This document shows positions 31,710 to 44,437 of a stretch of 64,000 nucleotides of DNA, one piece after another. The notes under the pieces were generated by a model. The model did not search any database. It was given only the letters and a program-made list of their open reading frames with translations, and was not told where the DNA came from. The stretch is from the IMG/VR virus record IMGVR_UViG_3300036766_000837, positions 50,932-114,931 of that record; one strand, 5' to 3'. The position numbers and the translations under genes are program-made. The stretch comes from a virus. Every line of letters starts with the position of its first letter. Within the stretch, counting starts at the first letter, position 1.

Positions 31710-31934
31710 TTATTCCCCGTGAAATTCCATATAGTCTTCTTTGGTTGGCCATACTCCAGATTCCAAGCCAAGATTTTTTTCTATAGAAGAATTTTCTATA
31801 AAAATAAATAGTCCGTGATAATTTACAGGACATTTATTATGTGCGCCCCATGCTTCGGAATATGGACCGGCCGTAGACGGTATTTCTATCCCCCATCTTC
31901 TACAAAATGAAACTGACTTTAATTCTTGAGTCAT
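31710..31934 (-). CDS. small hypothetical protein
   Basis: This 74-residue protein begins by ATGA overlap with the glycosyltransferase upstream. It contains AGPYSEAWGAHNKCPVNYHG in the middle and an acidic C-terminus. No known domain. Its coupling to the sugar cluster may be only positional. Confidence 0.55.
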   Translation of the reverse strand: MTQELKSVSFCRRWGIEIPSTAGPYSEAWGAHNKCPVNYHGLFIFIENSSIEKNLGLESGVWPTKEDYMEFHGE

Positions 31935-32602
31935 ACCAACCCCCCATATCTTTTAAGGGCATCAAGATAATCATTTGGAGGTTCCCCATTCCAAGGAATC
32001 AAAAATATCTCTTGTTTGGGAGGGCCTCCCCACTTAACTGCATATCTTTCTCTATTTAAAGCAAAATATCTTTGATGTTTTAATTTGACATCTCCCGGAA
32101 GCCTCTTAAGGGTTTCACTTCCCAGATGTTGAAGATTGGCGGGGATATAACCAACTTTATCTTTGTTTTTTATATCCATTCTATATGCGAAATCATTATC
32201 TTCAAAATAGGCTGGATAAAACCCTTCATCAAAAAAACCTACATCTGAAAAAACAATGGGATTAACCACAAATGTATCCCATCCAGAACAATTTACCCCT
32301 TGTGCGCCACAAAACCATAAATCTTCTTCCACAACTTTATTTATTATTGTTTGCAAACAATCTTCCCCAATAATCGTATCATCAGCAGAATAGACTATAT
32401 AATTACAGTTCTCATTGATAGCTCTCTTAAATCCCTTATTGAGAGTAGTAGCAAGCGACACCTCAAAATTGAAATTGGGAACAATATAGAATTCCTTGGG
32501 ATATGGATAAGTTCTTACGATACTATCAAGATGATTAGGCATCAAATCCCAGTTTCCCACCGTTAAGGTTACAATCCCGACCTTTATCGAACTAAAATCC
32601 AT
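31931..32602 (-). CDS. family 2-like glycosyltransferase
   Basis: This protein of about 223 residues starts at ATG 32602 behind GGAGG; an earlier ATG lies at 32614. It has the GT-A layout: IVTLTVGNWDLMPNHLDSI near the start, a DD metal-binding pair in YSADDTIIGEDCL, and FEDNDFAYRM later, which is typical of family 2 enzymes acting on surface glycans. It overlaps the aminotransferase end and closes the first sugar operon. The sugar and acceptor are unknown. Confidence 0.75.
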   Translation of the reverse strand: MDFSSIKVGIVTLTVGNWDLMPNHLDSIVRTYPYPKEFYIVPNFNFEVSLATTLNKGFKRAINENCNYIVYSADDTIIGEDCLQTIINKVVEEDLWFCGAQGVNCSGWDTFVVNPIVFSDVGFFDEGFYPAYFEDNDFAYRMDIKNKDKVGYIPANLQHLGSETLKRLPGDVKLKHQRYFALNRERYAVKWGGPPKQEIFLIPWNGEPPNDYLDALKRYGGLV

Positions 32603-33716
32603 ATAATCCTCCATCAAAATTATACTTGGCAATCCATTGCTTCACAAGTTGTATTATCAATTCAATATCTTCATCTCTGAGCCACCAACCAACGGGTATA
32701 CACACCATAGTTTCGAACCACTTGTCCAAATATGGCAATTTGGCTCTATATTCACTGAAACAAGAAAATCTGTCATTCCTATTATGGGTTTGAGATACTC
32801 CCACCCCATTTTGCTTCATAAATTTCTCAAATTTTATCGGGTGAGGAACATGTATGGTATATAACCAGAAGGATGATTCTCTATCCTTGGGCCATTCAGG
32901 GAGAAGTTTCATCTGAACAAGTTCATCATATTTCGCGGCATTTTCTCTATGAGATTTAACAATATTCGTTGAGGCGTAGTGGATATTTGCAAGTCCTATC
33001 GTTGCATTGATATCATTCATATGAAACTTGAAACCTACCTCTGGAATATCTTGCCGACACCGCATAGCATCACCGCTAGTTCTATCCAATCCATACCATC
33101 TCAAGAGTTTTGCTCTTTCATATTGCTCGGCAGGAGTAATAAGCAACCCTCCATCTCCAGTAGTTAGATTCTTAATTGCTTGGAATGAATAACAAATATA
33201 ATTTCCTCCGCCCACCGATAGGGGTTGACCTTTGTATGTAGCCATAAATGCATGGGCAGCATCTTCGATTATTGGAATCCCATTGGCAACTTCTCTCAGG
33301 GTAGAATAGTCACAAGGTAATCCTCCCCAATCTACCACCATAATCGCCTTTATCTGATTTCTACCCCAACGGTTAATAGCCCATTTTAACGATTCAGGAG
33401 ACATATTCCCATACTTATCTACATCTGTCCAAACTATATCTGCCCCTCTTGCGGCAATAACTTCGTTCGTTGCTGAACAGGTCATCGGTGTCGAAATAAT
33501 ATAATCTCCTGGACCAACACCGATGAGATGGAGGGCAAGATATAAAGCCGAAGTTCCTGAATTTACGGTAACCCCATATTCAAATTGCAAACATTCCTTC
33601 AATTTTGATTCGAACTCATCTACCTTCGGCCCTTGACCGATATATCCAGATTCTAAAACTTCGCCAACCATATATCTTGCCAATGGATTCATATAAACCT
33701 GGAATTGTGAGATCAT
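32592..33716 (-). CDS. DegT/DnrJ/EryC1/StrS-family sugar aminotransferase
   Basis: This protein of about 374 residues is a PLP-dependent enzyme that aminates keto-sugars bound to nucleotides. GTSALYLALHLIGVGPGD binds cofactor phosphate, IIEDAAHAF holds the PLP-ring Asp, and SFQAIKNLTTGDGG holds the Schiff-base Lys. Start: ATG 33716 with GGAG ahead, three bases after the stop of the upstream gene. It should work with a nucleotide-sugar dehydratase or epimerase; an epimerase is encoded at 43.5 kb and the GNAT at 35.3 kb could acetylate the amine. Confidence 0.9.
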   Translation of the reverse strand: MISQFQVYMNPLARYMVGEVLESGYIGQGPKVDEFESKLKECLQFEYGVTVNSGTSALYLALHLIGVGPGDYIISTPMTCSATNEVIAARGADIVWTDVDKYGNMSPESLKWAINRWGRNQIKAIMVVDWGGLPCDYSTLREVANGIPIIEDAAHAFMATYKGQPLSVGGGNYICYSFQAIKNLTTGDGGLLITPAEQYERAKLLRWYGLDRTSGDAMRCRQDIPEVGFKFHMNDINATIGLANIHYASTNIVKSHRENAAKYDELVQMKLLPEWPKDRESSFWLYTIHVPHPIKFEKFMKQNGVGVSQTHNRNDRFSCFSEYRAKLPYLDKWFETMVCIPVGWWLRDEDIELIIQLVKQWIAKYNFDGGLYGF

Positions 33717-33718
33717 TT

Positions 33719-34501
33719 TTACTCCATCCAGCCAGTCACATCTGATATTTTTAAATCTTCTGGAGGACAACCATATATCGCATCTTCGCTCATCGCATCT
33801 CCTGAAAGTCTACCCATCTTCACGCTCAAAGCCTTCCTATGTTCTCGTCTATATACCGCAGGAGTCTTGAGATACCCATAACTCATATGGAGACCCGCCA
33901 AGTTATAAATATATTCTATATCCCAGGAATGGGCCTGGTCAACTGGTCTTGGAATCCATCGTAAACCTTCATCATGAATACAATTAGTCCTATGAACGAA
34001 ACATCCTAGATTCCACCAATAAATATCATCTGCCTTAAGTTTTGTCACATCATAATTTCCCTTGAATCCCACCTTCCCCTCTGTGAAAGGATTTTGACCA
34101 TCATAGAAATACATCGGCTCCCCGACAACAACATGATAGCTTGAAGAATTCTCAATAAATCTATTTGCGGCCCCTAAGAATTCCGGGGCAAGAATATCAT
34201 CATCACAAAGATATACTATCAACTCATTATTTGGAATCTCTAAAATAACAACATTAGTGTTTTCTACAAATCTTTGGTCGTTTGGGTCTATCCTTTGTTC
34301 TAGAGATATCTGAGGCGCCTTGCATAGTATCAATTTATCATTATCATATTCTTTGGATAATTCTAACACATCAAAATCCGAACCATCATCTAATACCCAA
34401 ACTACAACATCTTGATGAGTTTGATTTACGATAGCACTATCTATAGCCTCACGAAGCATTCTTGGCCGATTATAGGAAAAAAGACAAACATTCACGCGCA
34501 T
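33719..34501 (-). CDS. family 2 glycosyltransferase, tandem copy A
   Basis: This 260-residue GT-A enzyme has CLFSYNRPRMLREAIDSA at the start, DDGSDF for nucleotide binding and YLCDDDILAPEF with the D-x-D metal site. It is a close paralogue of the next gene: SYNRPRML, DDGSDF, CDDDIL and VYRREHRKALS recur in the same order. The genes overlap by about 10 bases. It transfers a sugar from a nucleotide donor; donor and acceptor are unknown. Confidence 0.88.
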   Translation of the reverse strand: MRVNVCLFSYNRPRMLREAIDSAIVNQTHQDVVVWVLDDGSDFDVLELSKEYDNDKLILCKAPQISLEQRIDPNDQRFVENTNVVILEIPNNELIVYLCDDDILAPEFLGAANRFIENSSSYHVVVGEPMYFYDGQNPFTEGKVGFKGNYDVTKLKADDIYWWNLGCFVHRTNCIHDEGLRWIPRPVDQAHSWDIEYIYNLAGLHMSYGYLKTPAVYRREHRKALSVKMGRLSGDAMSEDAIYGCPPEDLKISDVTGWME

Positions 34502-35343
34502 GATTCCATCACTCCAAGAATCTCCTCAGATATAGGGGGCGGAATATAACCGGGCTTATATCTACCATATTTATCTTTTCTTCCCAAAAGAGAACTTAAT
34601 GATTTCTCATGTTCCCTTCTATACACCACCGGAGATTCTAAAACCAAAAATTGGGGATGCATATTCATCATATCATTTATAAATCTGATATCTTGGCTAT
34701 GCCCAAAATTATTACTTTGCCACCTTATATCTTCATCTTTGAAACACAATACTTTATGCGCAAATGTTCCCGTTCCCCAATATAAAGCTTTATCGGAAAA
34801 GTCTCCTGGCATCCCAAATATAGATTCGGTATATGGGTCTTGATTATCATTAAATGTAAATGCTTGGCCCACAGCCACATGCATCTTTGGAGTAGAATCT
34901 AGGGCTTTTGCCGCCCGACTTACCCAATTAACACCTAATATATCATCATCACAAAGATAATTAACTATATCTTCTTTCGAAAGAGTTTCTATAACAGCAT
35001 TTATATTATCTGATAACCTATTATTTTTAACTCGTTCAGTATTATCCATCTTAGGATGTTGATAATATACAACATCAAAATCATGTTCTTTTAATATCTC
35101 ATTATAGAAATAGTCTGAAGAAAAATCCGATCCATCATCTATGATATGCAAAATCAGAGTTTGGTCATTCTGTTTCTTTACACTATCTACCGCATCTTTA
35201 AGCATTCTTGGACGGTTATAACTAAGGAGAAGAACATGCGATTTGGAAATAGCAAGGCTACTACTGTCATTAAGGGTTTGTTTATACCTTCCGATGGCAA
35301 TTTCTCTTTGCTGTTCAAATTGAGGATCGGTTAATTCTGCCAT
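34492..35343 (-). CDS. family 2 glycosyltransferase, tandem copy B
   Basis: This 283-residue paralogue of the gene downstream has a 35-residue N-terminal extension before VLLLSYNRPRMLKDAVDSV. IIDDGSDF and YLCDDDILGVNW hold the donor and metal sites, and VYRREHEKSLS matches the partner. It starts right after the stop of the GNAT gene. The pair probably arose by duplication and may add two sugars in series. Confidence 0.88.
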   Translation of the reverse strand: MAELTDPQFEQQREIAIGRYKQTLNDSSSLAISKSHVLLLSYNRPRMLKDAVDSVKKQNDQTLILHIIDDGSDFSSDYFYNEILKEHDFDVVYYQHPKMDNTERVKNNRLSDNINAVIETLSKEDIVNYLCDDDILGVNWVSRAAKALDSTPKMHVAVGQAFTFNDNQDPYTESIFGMPGDFSDKALYWGTGTFAHKVLCFKDEDIRWQSNNFGHSQDIRFINDMMNMHPQFLVLESPVVYRREHEKSLSSLLGRKDKYGRYKPGYIPPPISEEILGVMESCA

Positions 35344-35892
35344 TTAAGTCCCTTTATCAACCAATCCCATTAATAGATAATCTAGATATTTCCCATCACG
35401 ATATAGATGCTCAACCATCTTTCCTTCATATTTCATTCCGGCTTTTTCATATACCTTCCTTGCCTTTTCATTAAGTTCTGCCACCAATAACCATATTCTG
35501 TGTAAACCCAAAACATTAAATGAATAATCAACTAATAAGGAAAAGGCTTCTACGGCATGTCCTTTCCCGCGAAAAGGTTCAAATGTGTCTACCCCTACAC
35601 AAGCATTCCTATTTATCCAATCTATTTCATTTATTCTTGCAATACCAACATCTAACCATCCAACATCTTCTGGTTTTCGCGGAACATTATCCTTAGTCCT
35701 ATATTGTGTAATAAAATACATATTATTATTACCAACTGTTTTAAACCATTCATCTTGATTAGATGGCCAAACAGGAAAGACTGAAGTTAGATAATGCCAT
35801 GTCGTCGGATTGTTACGGTGCGCGGCCAATAAACGCAAATCTGTTTCTTCTACTACCCTGAAGGCATAGTTTTTCTTTTTGTATACTTGCAC
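35344..35892 (-). CDS. GNAT-family N-acetyltransferase
   Basis: This 182-residue protein carries the acetyl-CoA site in FEPFRGKGHAVEAFSLLVDY (R-G-x-G-x-A form), then LGLHRIWLLVAELNEKARKVYEKAGMKYEG, the closing strand-helix of the GNAT fold. The start is GTG 35892 with AAAGGGG upstream. Lying with a sugar aminotransferase, it may N-acetylate an amino sugar, as WecD-like enzymes do. It might also act on a protein terminus, as RimI/RimJ-like members do. Confidence 0.82.
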   Translation of the reverse strand: MQVYKKKNYAFRVVEETDLRLLAAHRNNPTTWHYLTSVFPVWPSNQDEWFKTVGNNNMYFITQYRTKDNVPRKPEDVGWLDVGIARINEIDWINRNACVGVDTFEPFRGKGHAVEAFSLLVDYSFNVLGLHRIWLLVAELNEKARKVYEKAGMKYEGKMVEHLYRDGKYLDYLLMGLVDKGT

Positions 35893-35906: not shown

Positions 35907-37658
35907 TTAAGTATACCCCAAGGTGGCATCCTTTTCCATCGAATCACAACCGCCACCTATTGAGCAAGAAAGATTCTCATATTCTTTAATATCCAGGATT
36001 GTATTATCTAATAATCTTCCAGATTCATCTCTTTTTTCATTATCTCTTTTCTCATAATAAACGGCATCTCTAGAAGAATCAACATAAGTAGTTAATCCTT
36101 TACATCCAAGTCTCCATGCCTCTAAATATGCCTCTTTAAGTTCGGACTCTGCTACTCCTGCCGGAGCATTATTAGTCTTTGAAATAGATTGTCCCACCAT
36201 GTTCTCATCCATAGCATTTTGCCATACTGATTGCATCTTAATATGTGCCGAAAATGGAACCTCATAAGTGGTGATGAAAGAAGTATTATCCGCCAACCGA
36301 TGCTTCCATGTTGAGGCCCCTATCCCATTAGAAGTTCGTACTATCTCTCGCCCAAAATTAGGTTCTATAGATGCACTCGTATTAGATATCAAAGAACGTG
36401 TTCCTTCCGGCGCAATAGCAAGAAGACTTATATTTCTCAATTTCAAATCCATCTGTTTATGTTGAGATTTATCCCATAGGGGATATGTACCCTTTCTTTC
36501 AGCAATCCTACATGATTCATCTACTACAATTTTATTCATGAAAGACCCTATATTTCTGGCAATCTCATATGAAGATTCTTGGCCATAGATGGAACCCATC
36601 ATTACTAATATGTCGGCAAACCCTGTAATACCCAACCCAATCCTTCGAGTATCTTTACTAGCCTTCTCAAATTCTGGGGCAACATGAACATTGGCATCTA
36701 TAACATTGTCTAAAAATCTTATCCCTATTCTTATAGTCCTTTCAAGTTTTTTCCAATCGATATCCCTATTAGATATATGATTGACAAGATTTATTGACCC
36801 TAAACAACAATTTTCATAATTTAGCAAAGTTGTTTCGCCGCATGGATTAACTCCCTTAATCTCATATTCGGGATACAAAGGATTATTTCTATTAATCGCA
36901 TCTCTCCAAACCATACCCGGTTCTGCCATAAGATAATTGTTTCTAATTATCAAATCAAACATCTCTCTAGCATCTACCGTATCAACGGTACGTCTACCTA
37001 CACGAGAGACTAAATTCCAAGAAGAACCATCCTCAACGGCTCGCATAAATCTATCGGAAGTGAAGACAGATATATTAAAATTGGGCAGAGAATTTTCTTG
37101 ACTCTTCAGTGTAATAAATTTTCTAAGTTCGGGATGGTCATCATCAAGAAGGCCCATCATCGCCGCTCTTCGGCGCCCCCCCTGTTTAACAACCTCTCCT
37201 ATAGAATTGAAGATATTTGTCATGAATGAAACAGCTCCCGAAGAAAGTCTCATCGATGATTTAACATTCTCCACTTCAGACCTTAGATTAGAAAAATTAT
37301 AACCTACCCCAGCTCCTGCTTGAAATAACTTTGCTGAATGCCATGCGTGTTGCATGATTGAATCCAAAGAATCTTCTGGTATCTGAACAAAACAAGCCGA
37401 TAAAAGCCTCAGCCCTCCCCTTGACCCGGCATTCATTAAGGTCGGGCTATTAGGCAAAAAGTCTAATTCATATATTGCATTAAAAAATTCTTCTTCATAA
37501 GCATCTGGAGAGAATCCATATTTAGTCTCTTGAGACGCTATTGTTTTTGCAACCCTCCTCGAAAGCCCTTCCCAATCTTCTAAAAAATTGCCATTTTCAT
37601 CTCGATCATAATATCTACTTTTAAGCACCTCTTCTGCAAGAGGGGTAAGCTTGGGCAA
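35907..37658 (-). CDS. nrdJ: class II (adenosylcobalamin-dependent) ribonucleotide reductase
   Basis: This protein of about 583 residues reduces ribonucleotides to deoxyribonucleotides for phage DNA synthesis. Motifs: DFLPNSPTLMNAG, LLSACFVQIPEDS (redox Cys), GVNPCGETTLLNYENCCLGSINL (active site), IAPEGTRSLISNTSASIEP and a C-terminal Cys pair (SCSIGGGC). Single-chain size and the missing second subunit indicate class II, which needs B12 but not oxygen. Start: TTG 37658 with GGAGG seven bases upstream; the GTG at 37667 touches the ribosome site. It sits inside the sugar cluster. Confidence 0.93.
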   Translation of the reverse strand: MPKLTPLAEEVLKSRYYDRDENGNFLEDWEGLSRRVAKTIASQETKYGFSPDAYEEEFFNAIYELDFLPNSPTLMNAGSRGGLRLLSACFVQIPEDSLDSIMQHAWHSAKLFQAGAGVGYNFSNLRSEVENVKSSMRLSSGAVSFMTNIFNSIGEVVKQGGRRRAAMMGLLDDDHPELRKFITLKSQENSLPNFNISVFTSDRFMRAVEDGSSWNLVSRVGRRTVDTVDAREMFDLIIRNNYLMAEPGMVWRDAINRNNPLYPEYEIKGVNPCGETTLLNYENCCLGSINLVNHISNRDIDWKKLERTIRIGIRFLDNVIDANVHVAPEFEKASKDTRRIGLGITGFADILVMMGSIYGQESSYEIARNIGSFMNKIVVDESCRIAERKGTYPLWDKSQHKQMDLKLRNISLLAIAPEGTRSLISNTSASIEPNFGREIVRTSNGIGASTWKHRLADNTSFITTYEVPFSAHIKMQSVWQNAMDENMVGQSISKTNNAPAGVAESELKEAYLEAWRLGCKGLTTYVDSSRDAVYYEKRDNEKRDESGRLLDNTILDIKEYENLSCSIGGGCDSMEKDATLGYT

Positions 37659-37713
37659 AAGAATCACCTCCAGATGATATTTCTATTCTAGTAATTTTAG
37701 TTTATTTCGCTAT

Positions 37714-39783
37714 TTACTTGACTTTAAAAAACCTCTTGGGGATACGGCCTTCTAGATCGTCAATCTCTTTGGATATAATTTTTTTCCAATCAAACTTTTT
37801 CCGAATAAGTTTGGCGTTACTATATGCTTGTTTAGATACTTCATCATAATTTTCATATACATAAACCATCTTGTCACAAAGGTCATTGAAATCTGGCCGA
37901 GCCCAGTTTCCTAAATGAAAATCATGACTACTTGGCCCTTCAGTATATTTAAGTTTGATACCATATTCCGCAAATTCGGACATACCAGAATAATCGGGCA
38001 ATATGGTTGGCATTCCTGTAGCCATGGCTTGTAAAGGAATCATGCCGAACCCTTCACCAGAATTTCCAGTAATAAAAACTTTGCCATTTCGTTCTGCAAT
38101 AATTGTATGATTTTTGTTTGTAACACACCAAACCATACCAGAATATTCTGTATATGTTATATCATAAGCTTTAATACTTCCTGCGATTTTTGTTTTTTTA
38201 ACCGAAATTTGATAGTTCAATTGGGTATTGTCCTTAGAAACAAACCTTCCTTCTATAAGCCTATTAATTGGTTCCCTTTTAAATACTGAATTTGTGTATC
38301 CCAATTTAACACATAATTCAATAAAATCATCACAGAGTTGTTCAGAAGAGGTATAATAAGACACATTATGACCACTAAAGGTTCCATCACCCGCCATTAA
38401 TCCATTAAACAAATGTTCAAGCAATCTAGGAGAAAATTCAAAACACCATCTTGGTATTTTTTTATTTAAAGCTCCCTTCCCGCAAGATTTAAAAATTTCA
38501 AGTAAAGACTTAGAAACCACTCGGACATCAAATTTTTGAATGAAGGGATTAAGTTCAAAATATTTAAGTAGTTTAAAGATATGTTCCAAATTTTCCCTAT
38601 TTCTGTTTGAAATGCTTATATATGAATTTCCCTCCTCATCATCAAAATAACATCCTTCGGATATATACCACCCTAGAAGTTCAAAGAATAATGGAAGATA
38701 AATCTTTTCTGGCAATTTCTTTGCCCTATGCCATAAATTCGTTTGGTCATATATTTCATTAGTGGTTATGTAATCATCATCCCTTCCTTCCCACTTGCAA
38801 GTTAATGGAATATACCTCTTAGTTTTATTTTTCTGAACAAAATCTCCAGCATATTTTACCTGTAAATTCTCATAATTACGTGGGTTGATCGTTCCCCCCT
38901 GAGATGGCCAATAATATACTCTATGGTTTGGAGTTAATAACATATCCATTGATGCATTATCAAAATGAATCATCTGTCCGTTATACATAGTTTGATTTAT
39001 ATCAATAATAGGACAAAATTCCATCTTTCCGCTTGAATTAATCGTCGCCACGTTTTGACCAATAAATACCTCTGATCTATTTTTCCATCCATTTTCTGTA
39101 AGAATCCTTGTATCATCAGAAAAACAAGAAGGATAAACTAAACAATGCAAACTATGAAACATGGCGTTCATTTCAGGAATACTCAAGATACTTCTATAAG
39201 CTTCCACCTGAGGATGGTCTGTAACCGGACCGATTATAGAGGTTCCCTGTTTCATTCTACATTCCAACCATCCATTGGCTTTATAAAACAAACGAACATT
39301 GTTATTACCGGAAAATACCTTATTAAATGCATCGAAAACCATCTGGCCATTTTTCCTATCAGCGGGTTCCCCCATGTGAAAAAAAATAAGATAATCAGAA
39401 ATTATTCTTTTTGATAAGGTATAGTCTTTTGGGTCTATTCCATGAATAACTGTTCGGATAGGAATCTTAACCCCGGCAGCTTTAAACACTTTAGTACACC
39501 AATGAGAAGTAGTCCAAAATAAATTACGAGAATTGATACGGTCAATCCATTCATCAGGAACATAGGTGGATTCCCAAGGAGTATATCCAATCTTGAATTG
39601 ATGGTCTTCACCCCCATAGTCTGGGGGTTGTTTGAATGATAGAGAAATAGGGGCTGTCTCGTCTTCCCAATATGTTTTAATGCCCATAGAATTAAGAGTT
39701 TTACATATCTTAAATCCGGCATAACCGTAACCATCGTTCAATCCACTTGCAGCATTACCCCAAATTCCGATTTTTTCTATCAA
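37714..39783 (-). CDS. family 4-like glycosyltransferase interrupted by an intein
   Basis: The 689-residue precursor has exteins of residues 1-219 and 575-689, which would join to 334 residues. The N-terminal half (GIWGNAASGLNDGYGYAGF, VIHGIDPKDY, FFHMGEPADRKNG) and the C-terminal SGEGFGMIPLQAMATGMP with PDYSGMSEF are those of a GT-B family 4 enzyme. The intein sits directly before the E-G-F-G motif that binds the donor, so the unspliced protein should be inactive. Its start overlaps the upstream stop by ATGA. Confidence 0.9.
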   Translation of the reverse strand: MIEKIGIWGNAASGLNDGYGYAGFKICKTLNSMGIKTYWEDETAPISLSFKQPPDYGGEDHQFKIGYTPWESTYVPDEWIDRINSRNLFWTTSHWCTKVFKAAGVKIPIRTVIHGIDPKDYTLSKRIISDYLIFFHMGEPADRKNGQMVFDAFNKVFSGNNNVRLFYKANGWLECRMKQGTSIIGPVTDHPQVEAYRSILSIPEMNAMFHSLHCLVYPSCFSDDTRILTENGWKNRSEVFIGQNVATINSSGKMEFCPIIDINQTMYNGQMIHFDNASMDMLLTPNHRVYYWPSQGGTINPRNYENLQVKYAGDFVQKNKTKRYIPLTCKWEGRDDDYITTNEIYDQTNLWHRAKKLPEKIYLPLFFELLGWYISEGCYFDDEEGNSYISISNRNRENLEHIFKLLKYFELNPFIQKFDVRVVSKSLLEIFKSCGKGALNKKIPRWCFEFSPRLLEHLFNGLMAGDGTFSGHNVSYYTSSEQLCDDFIELCVKLGYTNSVFKREPINRLIEGRFVSKDNTQLNYQISVKKTKIAGSIKAYDITYTEYSGMVWCVTNKNHTIIAERNGKVFITGNSGEGFGMIPLQAMATGMPTILPDYSGMSEFAEYGIKLKYTEGPSSHDFHLGNWARPDFNDLCDKMVYVYENYDEVSKQAYSNAKLIRKKFDWKKIISKEIDDLEGRIPKRFFKVK
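38062..39126 (-). mobile_element. intein with LAGLIDADG endonuclease domain
   Basis: Residues 220-574 of the glycosyltransferase precursor (355 residues) form an intein. Splicing blocks: Cys1 in CFSDDTRILTENGW, block B in LLTPNHRVYYW (T-x-x-H), a terminal Asn in VFITGN and Ser as the first residue of the C-extein. Endonuclease blocks: FFELLGWYISEG and LFNGLMAGDGTFSG, the two LAGLIDADG motifs. The residue before the terminal Asn is Gly instead of the usual His, which is known to be tolerated in some inteins but deserves testing. Confidence 0.93.
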
Positions 39784-40559
39784 GAAGATTCCTTTTTGAT
39801 ATTTTCCAAGAAATCTTCTATATTTTTCTCAAAATTTGCCATAAAAGTATCTATATCTTGTTCTTCTATTTTCTCTCCGCGCGCAAAGGAGAATGGAAAT
39901 GCTTTACATCCTACCCTATCGAATAGATATGCATTTACCCAAGTGATATTAACTGTATATTTTGTTCCACAATTTTCACACTCAACGATAGCAAAAGGAT
40001 TCGTTAATCCTTTGGGATAATGGACCTCAAATTTATTAATATCCGTAATAGGAACAAGTTTATTGCAGTTAGGACAAGGAGAATTTCCTATAGTTCTTTT
40101 TTCATTCATATTTTTTGTTATTTCCTTCACTTCCTCGTTAGAATCTAATAGTTGTTTTTCTAAAAAATCCTCACTAAACTTCATTTTTAACTCATCTACT
40201 GCCTTTCTAAGATGAGAATGTTCACCAGACTTTCCAAGTTGATATGATTCTGTTTTTTCATTACAAAAATTATTTATATGACCTAAATCGTTGTTTATTA
40301 TTCTTAATACTCCTGTCCCACAGTAAAAATTGGTTAACTCTTGCAAAGTATTATAATTCCCTGGATCGCTCATGTCAAACCCGGCATAGGCAAGTAACAT
40401 TAACAAATTATATTCTGATATATCCCCTCCGATAGCGATTCCATAGGCTAAGACGGATAAGATTTTATCTTCTTGATCGGAAGAATCTTTTATTTTGTCT
40501 AAATTATCTTTTAAATACCTAAAAGCATAGAATTCTATGGACATTTCTTTTCTAATCAT
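39780..40559 (-). CDS. zinc-ribbon protein of unknown function
   Basis: This 259-residue protein is largely helical in its first 130 residues (AYGIAIGGDISEYNLLMLLAYAGF), then has a four-Cys zinc ribbon (CPNCNKLV ... CENCGTKY), and ends with an acidic helix. It is the first gene of the minus-strand operon leaving the divergent region at 40.6 kb. It overlaps the next gene by ATGA. Zinc ribbons at operon heads are often nucleic-acid binding, but I cannot assign a role. Confidence 0.6.
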   Translation of the reverse strand: MIRKEMSIEFYAFRYLKDNLDKIKDSSDQEDKILSVLAYGIAIGGDISEYNLLMLLAYAGFDMSDPGNYNTLQELTNFYCGTGVLRIINNDLGHINNFCNEKTESYQLGKSGEHSHLRKAVDELKMKFSEDFLEKQLLDSNEEVKEITKNMNEKRTIGNSPCPNCNKLVPITDINKFEVHYPKGLTNPFAIVECENCGTKYTVNITWVNAYLFDRVGCKAFPFSFARGEKIEEQDIDTFMANFEKNIEDFLENIKKESS

Positions 40560-43325: not shown

Positions 43326-43550
43326 ATGTTTTGTTGCGTATGTGCTGGAAGTTGTTGCCATACAGGACCACATTCATATTGTTGGAAACATAGTCAGAAT
43401 TTATTGGAAAGAATTTGGCCGCCCATTCCTCAAGTTTATTGTAATCATTGTTATTGTATTGATGTCCCCCCTACATTTAATAGACCCCGATTGCATACTA
43501 GGTGTTGCAAATGTTGGAACATACAGTTAAAACATGGAATATTGAAGTGA
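43326..43550 (+). CDS. small Cys/His-rich protein
   Basis: This 74-residue protein starts with FCCVCAGSCCHTGPHSYCWKH, then has YCNHCYCIDVPP and CCKCW, clearly arranged for binding two or more zinc ions. AGGAGG precedes the ATG. The stop overlaps the epimerase start. Function unknown; small zinc proteins of this kind recur in the plus-strand half. Confidence 0.65.
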   Translation: MFCCVCAGSCCHTGPHSYCWKHSQNLLERIWPPIPQVYCNHCYCIDVPPTFNRPRLHTRCCKCWNIQLKHGILK

Positions 43551-44437
43551 AAATTCTTCTTATTGGTGGTTGCGGATACATAGGTTCTAAATTATATGAA
43601 GAATTAATTAATAATTCGTATGACGTAGATACCGTAGATATTGAGTGGTTTGGAAATTATGTCAATAAGAATAATCAAAAAATCTTATATAGTGAATTAC
43701 GGGAAAGCACTCTTCGGAATTATCAGATTATAATCTTGACTGCTGCTTATTCTAGTGTTGCTATGTGTGAGATTAATCCCCTGGCTTCTGTTGTAAGTAA
43801 TGTTAACAATTTCATACAATTGTTGGACAAAATAAGTAATGGCCGAAAATTTATATATATGAGTAGTTCAAGTGTATATAATGGAAGATTTTTTGCATCG
43901 GAGGAGACTCCTATAAATGAGGCCACAAACTATTACGACCTTACTAAATTTTTTGCGGACTTATGGGCAAAGATTTCCGACAAAGAGTTTTATGGACTTC
44001 GACTTGGGACGGTAAACGGATTTTCTCCGAATCTTCGCTCCGATATCATGATAAACAAGATGGTTTTATCCGCAAAAGATTCTGGTAAAATTGAGGTATA
44101 TAATCCATATAATGCGCGACCAATTCTTGGCATTAACGATCTTTGCCGCGCAATTATTGCTATAATAGAAGGGGATGACCGTCGAGGCATTTATAATCTT
44201 TCCAGTTTTGACGATATGATAGGAAATATTGCAGAAGATGTTGCTAAAATACTTAACATACCGATTTATGATATGGGGGAAAATAAGGCATATGATTTCA
44301 GTATCAGAACGGTAAAGTTTCAAAAAACATACGATTTCATTTTTAATGACACTATCGAATCAATCGTTGAGTCTTTAAATGGGGGATTGGAGAATGGGAC
44401 CATCAAAAACATACAAGGCAGGCCAATATCTGTATGA
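43547..44437 (+). CDS. NAD-dependent nucleotide-sugar epimerase/dehydratase
   Basis: This 296-residue extended short-chain dehydrogenase starts at GTG 43547 (GTGA overlap). KILLIGGCGYIGSKLYEEL binds NAD, YMSSSSVYNG holds the catalytic Ser, and NYYDLTKFFAD gives the Y-x-x-x-K pair. GLRLGTVNGFSPNLRSD follows as in UDP-sugar epimerases. It acts on nucleotide sugars in the cytoplasm and opens the second sugar operon. The exact substrate is not clear. Confidence 0.88.
   Translation: MKILLIGGCGYIGSKLYEELINNSYDVDTVDIEWFGNYVNKNNQKILYSELRESTLRNYQIIILTAAYSSVAMCEINPLASVVSNVNNFIQLLDKISNGRKFIYMSSSSVYNGRFFASEETPINEATNYYDLTKFFADLWAKISDKEFYGLRLGTVNGFSPNLRSDIMINKMVLSAKDSGKIEVYNPYNARPILGINDLCRAIIAIIEGDDRRGIYNLSSFDDMIGNIAEDVAKILNIPIYDMGENKAYDFSIRTVKFQKTYDFIFNDTIESIVESLNGGLENGTIKNIQGRPISV

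What the first reader, a model, noticed from the sequence alone, without database searches (positions are those of the whole stretch)
38062..39126. Intein inside a phage glycosyltransferase
The GT4-like gene at 37714-39783 contains a 355-residue intein with all splicing blocks and two LAGLIDADG endonuclease motifs (seen directly). Known inteins sit mostly in replication, repair and terminase proteins, so a sugar-transferring enzyme is an unusual host. It is inserted directly before the E-G-F-G donor-binding motif, so splicing would be needed for activity and could act as a switch. The residue before the terminal Asn is Gly instead of His.
Basis: partly seen in the sequence, partly recalled or inferred. 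Interest (0 to 1): 0.85.

Follow-up and report, generated by a model that had tools for sequence, protein, structure and literature searches.

The report
Self-splicing intein in phage glycosyltransferase
A phage gene for a sugar-transferring enzyme carries a self-removing protein insert (an intein with its own homing endonuclease) next to the enzyme's most conserved motif; the insert is an ordinary phage type, but this host enzyme is rarely seen and the closest relative sits almost exactly there in a different enzyme of the same broad kind.

Summary
ORF 37714-39783(-) is a GT4-type glycosyltransferase (334 aa once spliced) interrupted by a 355-aa intein at 38062-39126(-). It has Cys1, TPNH (block B), Cys at F:4, terminal Gly-Asn, Ser+1 and two intact LAGLIDADG motifs. 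AlphaFold gives pLDDT 92, and the best fold matches are inteins. Orthologues in related phages lack it; seven read YPS|SGEGFG, an exact empty site. The site lies in the most conserved 12 residues of the enzyme. It is a class 1 homing intein. The penultimate Gly is normal: 41 of 41 aligned inteins have it, and a published mycobacteriophage intein with native Gly splices fully. No evidence supports a switch. The host is rare but not unique: the nearest relative (38-40% identity, 100/98 support) is in a different GT4 of an unrelated phage, one codon away at the same EGFG motif, with a dead endonuclease. A third GT4 intein lies elsewhere, and NDP-sugar enzymes also carry them. No GT intein was found in 50,697 phage records, nor by motif in about 85,000 species. 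Verdict: a new insertion site for a known kind of element; the interesting part is a possible GT4-targeting intein lineage.

The parts
37714..39783 (-). GT4-like glycosyltransferase precursor, 689 aa, TTG start overlapping the stop of the upstream gene (TTGA); Shine-Dalgarno-like AAAAGG at 39791-39796
39127..39783 (-). N-extein, 219 aa, ends ...LVYPS
38062..39126 (-). Intein, 355 aa, class 1 with LAGLIDADG homing endonuclease
39124..39126 (-). Cys1, first nucleophile (41 of 41 aligned inteins)
38923..38934 (-). Block B T-P-N-H (residues 65-68; His68 invariant)
38653..38679 (-). LAGLIDADG motif 1, LLGWYISEG (acidic E157 present)
38383..38400 (-). LAGLIDADG motif 2, LMAGDG (acidic D247 present)
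38119..38133 (-). Block F VWCVT with invariant Cys at F:4 (residue 334)
38062..38067 (-). Terminal Gly-Asn; Asn cyclisation releases the intein
38059..38061 (-). Ser +1, second nucleophile, first residue of the C-extein
37714..38061 (-). C-extein, 115 aa plus stop
38044..38055 (-). E-G-F-G motif of GT4 enzymes, start of the E-x7-E region; invariant in 25 aligned relatives

Best explanation
A class 1 self-splicing intein with an apparently intact LAGLIDADG homing endonuclease has invaded a phage GT4-like glycosyltransferase gene between codons for VYPS and SGEGFG. After translation, Cys1 starts an N-S acyl shift, Ser+1 takes over the N-extein by transesterification, the terminal Asn cyclises (with Gly, not His, before it) and the exteins are rejoined into a 334-aa glycosyltransferase. 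At the DNA level the endonuclease would cut intein-free copies around the EGFG-coding stretch and copy the element in by recombination. Shown: anatomy, homology, predicted fold, empty sites in orthologues, and a sister intein near the same motif of another GT4. Inferred: that it splices, that the endonuclease cuts, that it moved by homing, and that the spliced enzyme is active.
For: Exact frame and junctions. Full-length intein homologues ending G-N in Lak phages, E. coli phage TH47, mycobacteriophage nucleotidyltransferase, DNA methylases and an archaeal plasmid radical SAM gene. C1, block B His, F:4 Cys and G:6 Gly are each 41 of 41 in aligned inteins; LAGLIDADG acids E157 and D247 present. 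AlphaFold pLDDT 92, pTM 0.92; top Foldseek hits are TliVMA and PhoVMA inteins, intein endonuclease II (2cw7) and PI-SceI. Spliced product matches intein-free glycosyltransferases of Streptomyces and Rhodococcus phages over more than 90%; six records with such intein-free genes share the portal protein at 42-49% identity. Seven intein-free loci encode YPSSGEGFG with Ser at +1. The site lies in the lowest-entropy 12-residue window of the family, rank 1 of 229.
Against: No splicing or cleavage assay. The nearest intein-free glycosyltransferases are only about 34-42% identical, so no empty allele of the same phage species was seen. The precursor model is poor at the N-extein junction, so site geometry was not modelled. 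The terminal Gly departs from the textbook His, although this is normal for the group.
Confidence: 0.93

Rival explanations
1. Conditional intein: splicing is held back by the precursor or by a signal (redox, metal, temperature) and acts as a switch on glycosylation during infection.
For: The site is next to the EGFG motif, so the precursor should be inactive; Cys1 and Cys334 (F:4) could in principle make splicing redox-sensitive; conditional splicing is known for other inteins (PMC5790916, abstract).
Against: All features are shared with ordinary homing inteins in terminases, portals, methylases and other hosts. A mycobacteriophage intein with native penultimate Gly splices fully and is slowed by a Gly-to-His change (PMC5050341). 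An apparently intact endonuclease points to a selfish element. Orthologues do without it.
Confidence: 0.05
2. Degenerate or non-splicing insert that inactivates the gene (dead allele).
For: The gene is accessory in appearance (sugar cluster); non-canonical penultimate residue.
Against: Open frame throughout, all catalytic residues of intein and endonuclease present, extein motifs intact.
Confidence: 0.03
3. Class 3 intein, initiating splicing from the block F Cys (WCT triplet) rather than from Cys1.
For: Cys at F:4 and Thr at G:5 are present.
Against: Position 1 is Cys; B:12 is Val, not Trp; G:5 varies in relatives while Cys1 is invariant.
Confidence: 0.03

Closest known systems
Intein in the GT4 gene of IMGVR_UViG_3300033149_001352 (locus L114)
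   Same: Closest intein found: 38-40% identity end to end, 100/98 branch support with the window intein; same EGFG motif; Cys1, F:4 Cys, G-N, Ser+1
   Different: Inserted one codon earlier relative to EGFG (P|SVTEGFG, not S|SGEGFG); in a GT4 that BLASTP aligns only in the C-terminal part; in a phage with no portal or RNR homologue of this one; both endonuclease acids lost (K, G)
Class 1 mycobacteriophage inteins without penultimate His (RDF, nucleotidyltransferase, DNA methylases; PMC5050341)
   Same: Cys1, block B T..H, LAGLIDADG, Gly-Asn end, inserted at conserved motifs of phage proteins; 26-28% identity to the nucleotidyltransferase and methylase inteins
   Different: No glycosyltransferase host is listed there (Table 1; 'glycosyl' does not occur in the text)
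Glycosyltransferases of Stanwilliamsviridae (e.g. Streptomyces phages Mildred21, Comrade) and of Rhodococcus phage Trina
   Same: Intein-free homologues at 29-40% identity with the same PSxGEG[FW]G motif; same records carry a homologous portal
   Different: W or Y at the +1 position, which cannot serve as splicing nucleophile; no insert
VMA inteins TliVMA/PhoVMA and PI-SceI
   Same: Same predicted fold: Hint domain plus two-motif LAGLIDADG endonuclease
   Different: 11-17% identity; different hosts; VMA inteins have penultimate His (own knowledge)

Membership tests
Class 1 intein | Cys/Ser/Thr at position 1 at a precise N-junction | tested here: met
   Cys1; invariant in 41 aligned inteins
Class 1 intein | Block B T-x-x-H | tested here: met
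   T65-P-N-H68
Class 1 intein | C-terminal Asn followed by Cys/Ser/Thr | tested here: met
   N355 | Ser+1
Class 1 intein | Penultimate His (canonical, not required) | tested here: not met
   Gly354; but Gly in 41 of 41 aligned inteins, and native Gly splices in PMC5050341; not a defining requirement
Class 1 intein | Hint fold | tested here: met
   AlphaFold pLDDT 92; Foldseek hits TliVMA, PI-SceI, Hedgehog
Class 1 intein | Intein-free homologues of the host protein | tested here: met
   136 phage records align over at least 80% of the spliced protein in one place; empty site YPSSGEGFG in 7 viral loci
Class 1 intein | Autocatalytic splicing | not testable with these tools
   Needs expression
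LAGLIDADG homing endonuclease | Two LAGLIDADG motifs with catalytic acids | tested here: met
   E157 and D247 present; Pfam PF14528 E=5.5e-10
LAGLIDADG homing endonuclease | Site-specific cleavage of the empty site | not testable with these tools
   Needs a cleavage assay
Class 3 intein | No nucleophile at position 1 plus W(B:12)-C(F:4)-T(G:5) | tested here: not met
   Cys1 present, B:12 is Val
GT4-type glycosyltransferase (extein) | Pfam Glycos_transf_1 / Glyco_trans_1_4 above cut-off after removal of the intein | tested here: met
   PF13692 35.4 bits (cut-off 27), PF00534 34.5 (26.4)
GT4-type glycosyltransferase (extein) | E-x7-E motif | tested here: inconclusive
   First Glu invariant; second is Gln here and in 14 of 25 aligned sequences, Glu in 11
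GT4-type glycosyltransferase (extein) | Sugar transfer activity and substrates | not testable with these tools
   Needs an enzyme assay

The most novel reading that the evidence does not exclude
A lineage of phage inteins has specialised on the EGFG-coding stretch of GT4 glycosyltransferases and has crossed between unrelated phages and divergent GT4 subfamilies, using the one DNA stretch these enzymes share (12 of 14 bases identical, GAAGG[G/A]TTCGG[C/A]AT), with a one-codon shift of insertion point between the two known members.
Probability: 0.4. Interest if true: 0.5.

Novelty: new member of a known kind. Interest (0 to 1): 0.36.

Why it matters
It adds glycosyltransferases, and with the other finds here NDP-sugar enzymes, to the known host range of phage inteins, which has been described mainly as nucleic-acid and packaging proteins. 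The pair of sister inteins at almost the same motif of two different GT4 enzymes offers a test of how inteins jump between host genes (target sharing at a conserved motif), with one endonuclease apparently intact and one apparently dead. The practical use is modest: annotation pipelines split or misname such genes.

Tried and rejected
Close-relative scans of IMG/VR with the intein or the spliced enzyme alone found nothing. A scan for G-N-[SCT]-GEGFG in IMG/VR gave 21 hits, all unrelated proteins. A stricter motif with one residue before EGFG gave one false hit; with two residues before EGFG it gave only L114 again. The same motif in genome contigs (about 85,000 species) gave 4 false hits, and a protein scan there gave none. 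These motif scans miss inteins ending in His-Asn or lacking the NG spacing, so they bound rather than exclude further cases. Class 3 membership was considered because of F:4 Cys and G:5 Thr and rejected. Precursor modelling gave low confidence at the N-extein junction because the alignment was displaced there, so no structural claim about the site is made; its fold search showed only intein and homing-endonuclease matches among those listed. Literature searches found no report of a glycosyltransferase intein in the open-access library, which misses most subscription papers and intein databases.

Full report
OBSERVATION. The reading frame 37714-39783 lies on the minus strand. It encodes 689 aa from a TTG that overlaps the stop of the upstream gene (TTGA) and has an AAAAGG seven bases upstream. 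Residues 220-574, exactly 355 codons at 38062-39126, form an insert with junctions LVYPS|CFSDDTRIL and VFITGN|SGEGFG. The intein is poorer in G+C (31.5%) than the exteins (about 37.5%).

INTEIN. Pfam finds LAGLIDADG_3 (E=5.5e-10). tblastn against 50,697 phage records finds full-length homologues, E down to 3e-28: Lak-A1, E. coli phage TH47, mycobacteriophage nucleotidyltransferase gp3, DNA methylases of EBPR siphovirus 2 and Bobi. An archaeal plasmid radical SAM gene has one too. In an alignment of 41 such inteins Cys1, block B His, F:4 Cys and the Gly before the terminal Asn are invariant, and the two LAGLIDADG acids are present in the window intein. AlphaFold from 35 sequences gives pLDDT 92 and pTM 0.92; Foldseek's best PDB hits are TliVMA (1.7e-20), PhoVMA, 2cw7 and PI-SceI inteins. 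This is a class 1 intein. The class 3 signature fails at position 1 (Cys present) and at B:12 (Val, not Trp).

GLY-ASN END. In this group it is the rule: 41 of 41 aligned inteins, and 70 of 79 parsed loci end G-N. Kelley et al. (PMC5050341) report that mycobacteriophage class 1 inteins vary at this position, that the Bethlehem RDF intein with native Gly splices completely, and that changing it to His slows splicing greatly.

HOST ENZYME. With the intein removed the Pfam GT scores rise above their cut-offs. The joined protein matches glycosyltransferases of Streptomyces and Rhodococcus phages over more than 90% of its length at up to 40% identity. Six records with intein-free relatives also carry a portal homologous to the window's (42-49% identity), and the GT gene is close to a ribonucleotide reductase gene in the window and in Mildred21 and Trina, though the reductases themselves match weakly or not at all. 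So this is a lineage gene with an insert, not an odd fusion. At the insertion point relatives read PS[W/Y/S]GEGFG, or T, M or N variants; seven viral loci read YPS|SGEGFG, an empty site that already has the Ser needed at +1. The insertion lies in the most conserved 12-residue window of the family (rank 1 of 229), as is usual for inteins (PMC2814812).

HOW UNUSUAL IS THE HOST. No record among 50,697 phages has an intein-bearing homologue (no match over 80% of the precursor). A profile scan of IMG/VR for related inteins returned 335 relatives, 80 kept. The best by far, L114, is again in a GT4: PF00534 E=1.5e-31 when spliced, with GT4 genes on both sides. The two inteins are 38-40% identical and form a 100/98 supported pair; the exteins align only in the C-terminal third (31% over 112 residues), and the phage record has no homologue of the window phage's portal or reductase. 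The insertion is P|SVTEGFG there and S|SGEGFG here, one codon apart; the DNA over EGFG agrees at 12 of 14 bases. Both endonuclease acids are lost in L114. A second relative, L123, is in a GT4 at another place, downstream of EGFG. Other relatives sit in NDP-sugar SDR enzymes: L195 and L201 within S|TDEV[FY]G of an RmlB-like dehydratase, and L141 before CYDESKR, the YxxxK region. The remaining hosts include terminase gpA, RNA polymerase beta, DNA methylase, tape measure and portal. So sugar enzymes are a minor but real part of the host range.

MECHANISM. Established for the class: acyl shift at Cys1, transesterification to Ser+1, Asn cyclisation, and a final shift to a peptide bond. Inferred here from conserved residues; no assay was possible. 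Homing is inferred from the intact endonuclease motifs, patchy presence and the empty site. A switch role is possible for any intein at an active site, but nothing here favours it.

LIMITS. Motif scans catch only inteins with the NG-x5-GN ending. No empty allele of the same phage species was found. The open-access library cannot exclude an earlier report of a glycosyltransferase intein.

Noticed in passing
G000:C1:44687-46946 (-), same virus record, outside the window (L219): DnaB/gp41-like helicase interrupted after the Walker A motif (GWTESAKS|IPVKTLL...NYIPTHN|TWLAIFF); no nucleophile at position 1, W at B:12, C at F:4, T at G:5: class 3 intein signature.
   Followed up: partly
G000:C1:29468-32291 (-), same virus record, outside the window (L218): Terminase large subunit with an insert in its Walker A region ending NILTHN|SIKAAF; Cys at F:4 and Thr at G:5 but Gln at B:12. 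Exact N-junction not settled. The phage thus carries three inteins.
   Followed up: partly
window 31931-35892 (-) and 43502-44437 (+): Sugar gene set beside the GT: DegT-type aminotransferase, GNAT acetyltransferase, two GT2 glycosyltransferases, a galactosyltransferase-like gene, and a nucleotide-sugar epimerase match on the other strand; suggests synthesis and transfer of an N-acetylated amino sugar.
   Followed up: no
window 35907-37667 (-): Class II (B12-dependent) ribonucleotide reductase NrdJ, only 586 aa, directly downstream of the GT.
   Followed up: no
L195:3596-5650, L201:2879-5056, L141:2461-4941: Phage inteins inside NDP-sugar SDR enzymes, at the catalytic TDEV[FY]G motif (RmlB-like) or at CYDESKR (YxxxK region).
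   Followed up: partly
G001 (record of L114, 136445 bases): Seven LAGLIDADG_3 matches in six open frames, the GT4 intein included; this phage appears rich in inteins or homing endonucleases.
   Followed up: no
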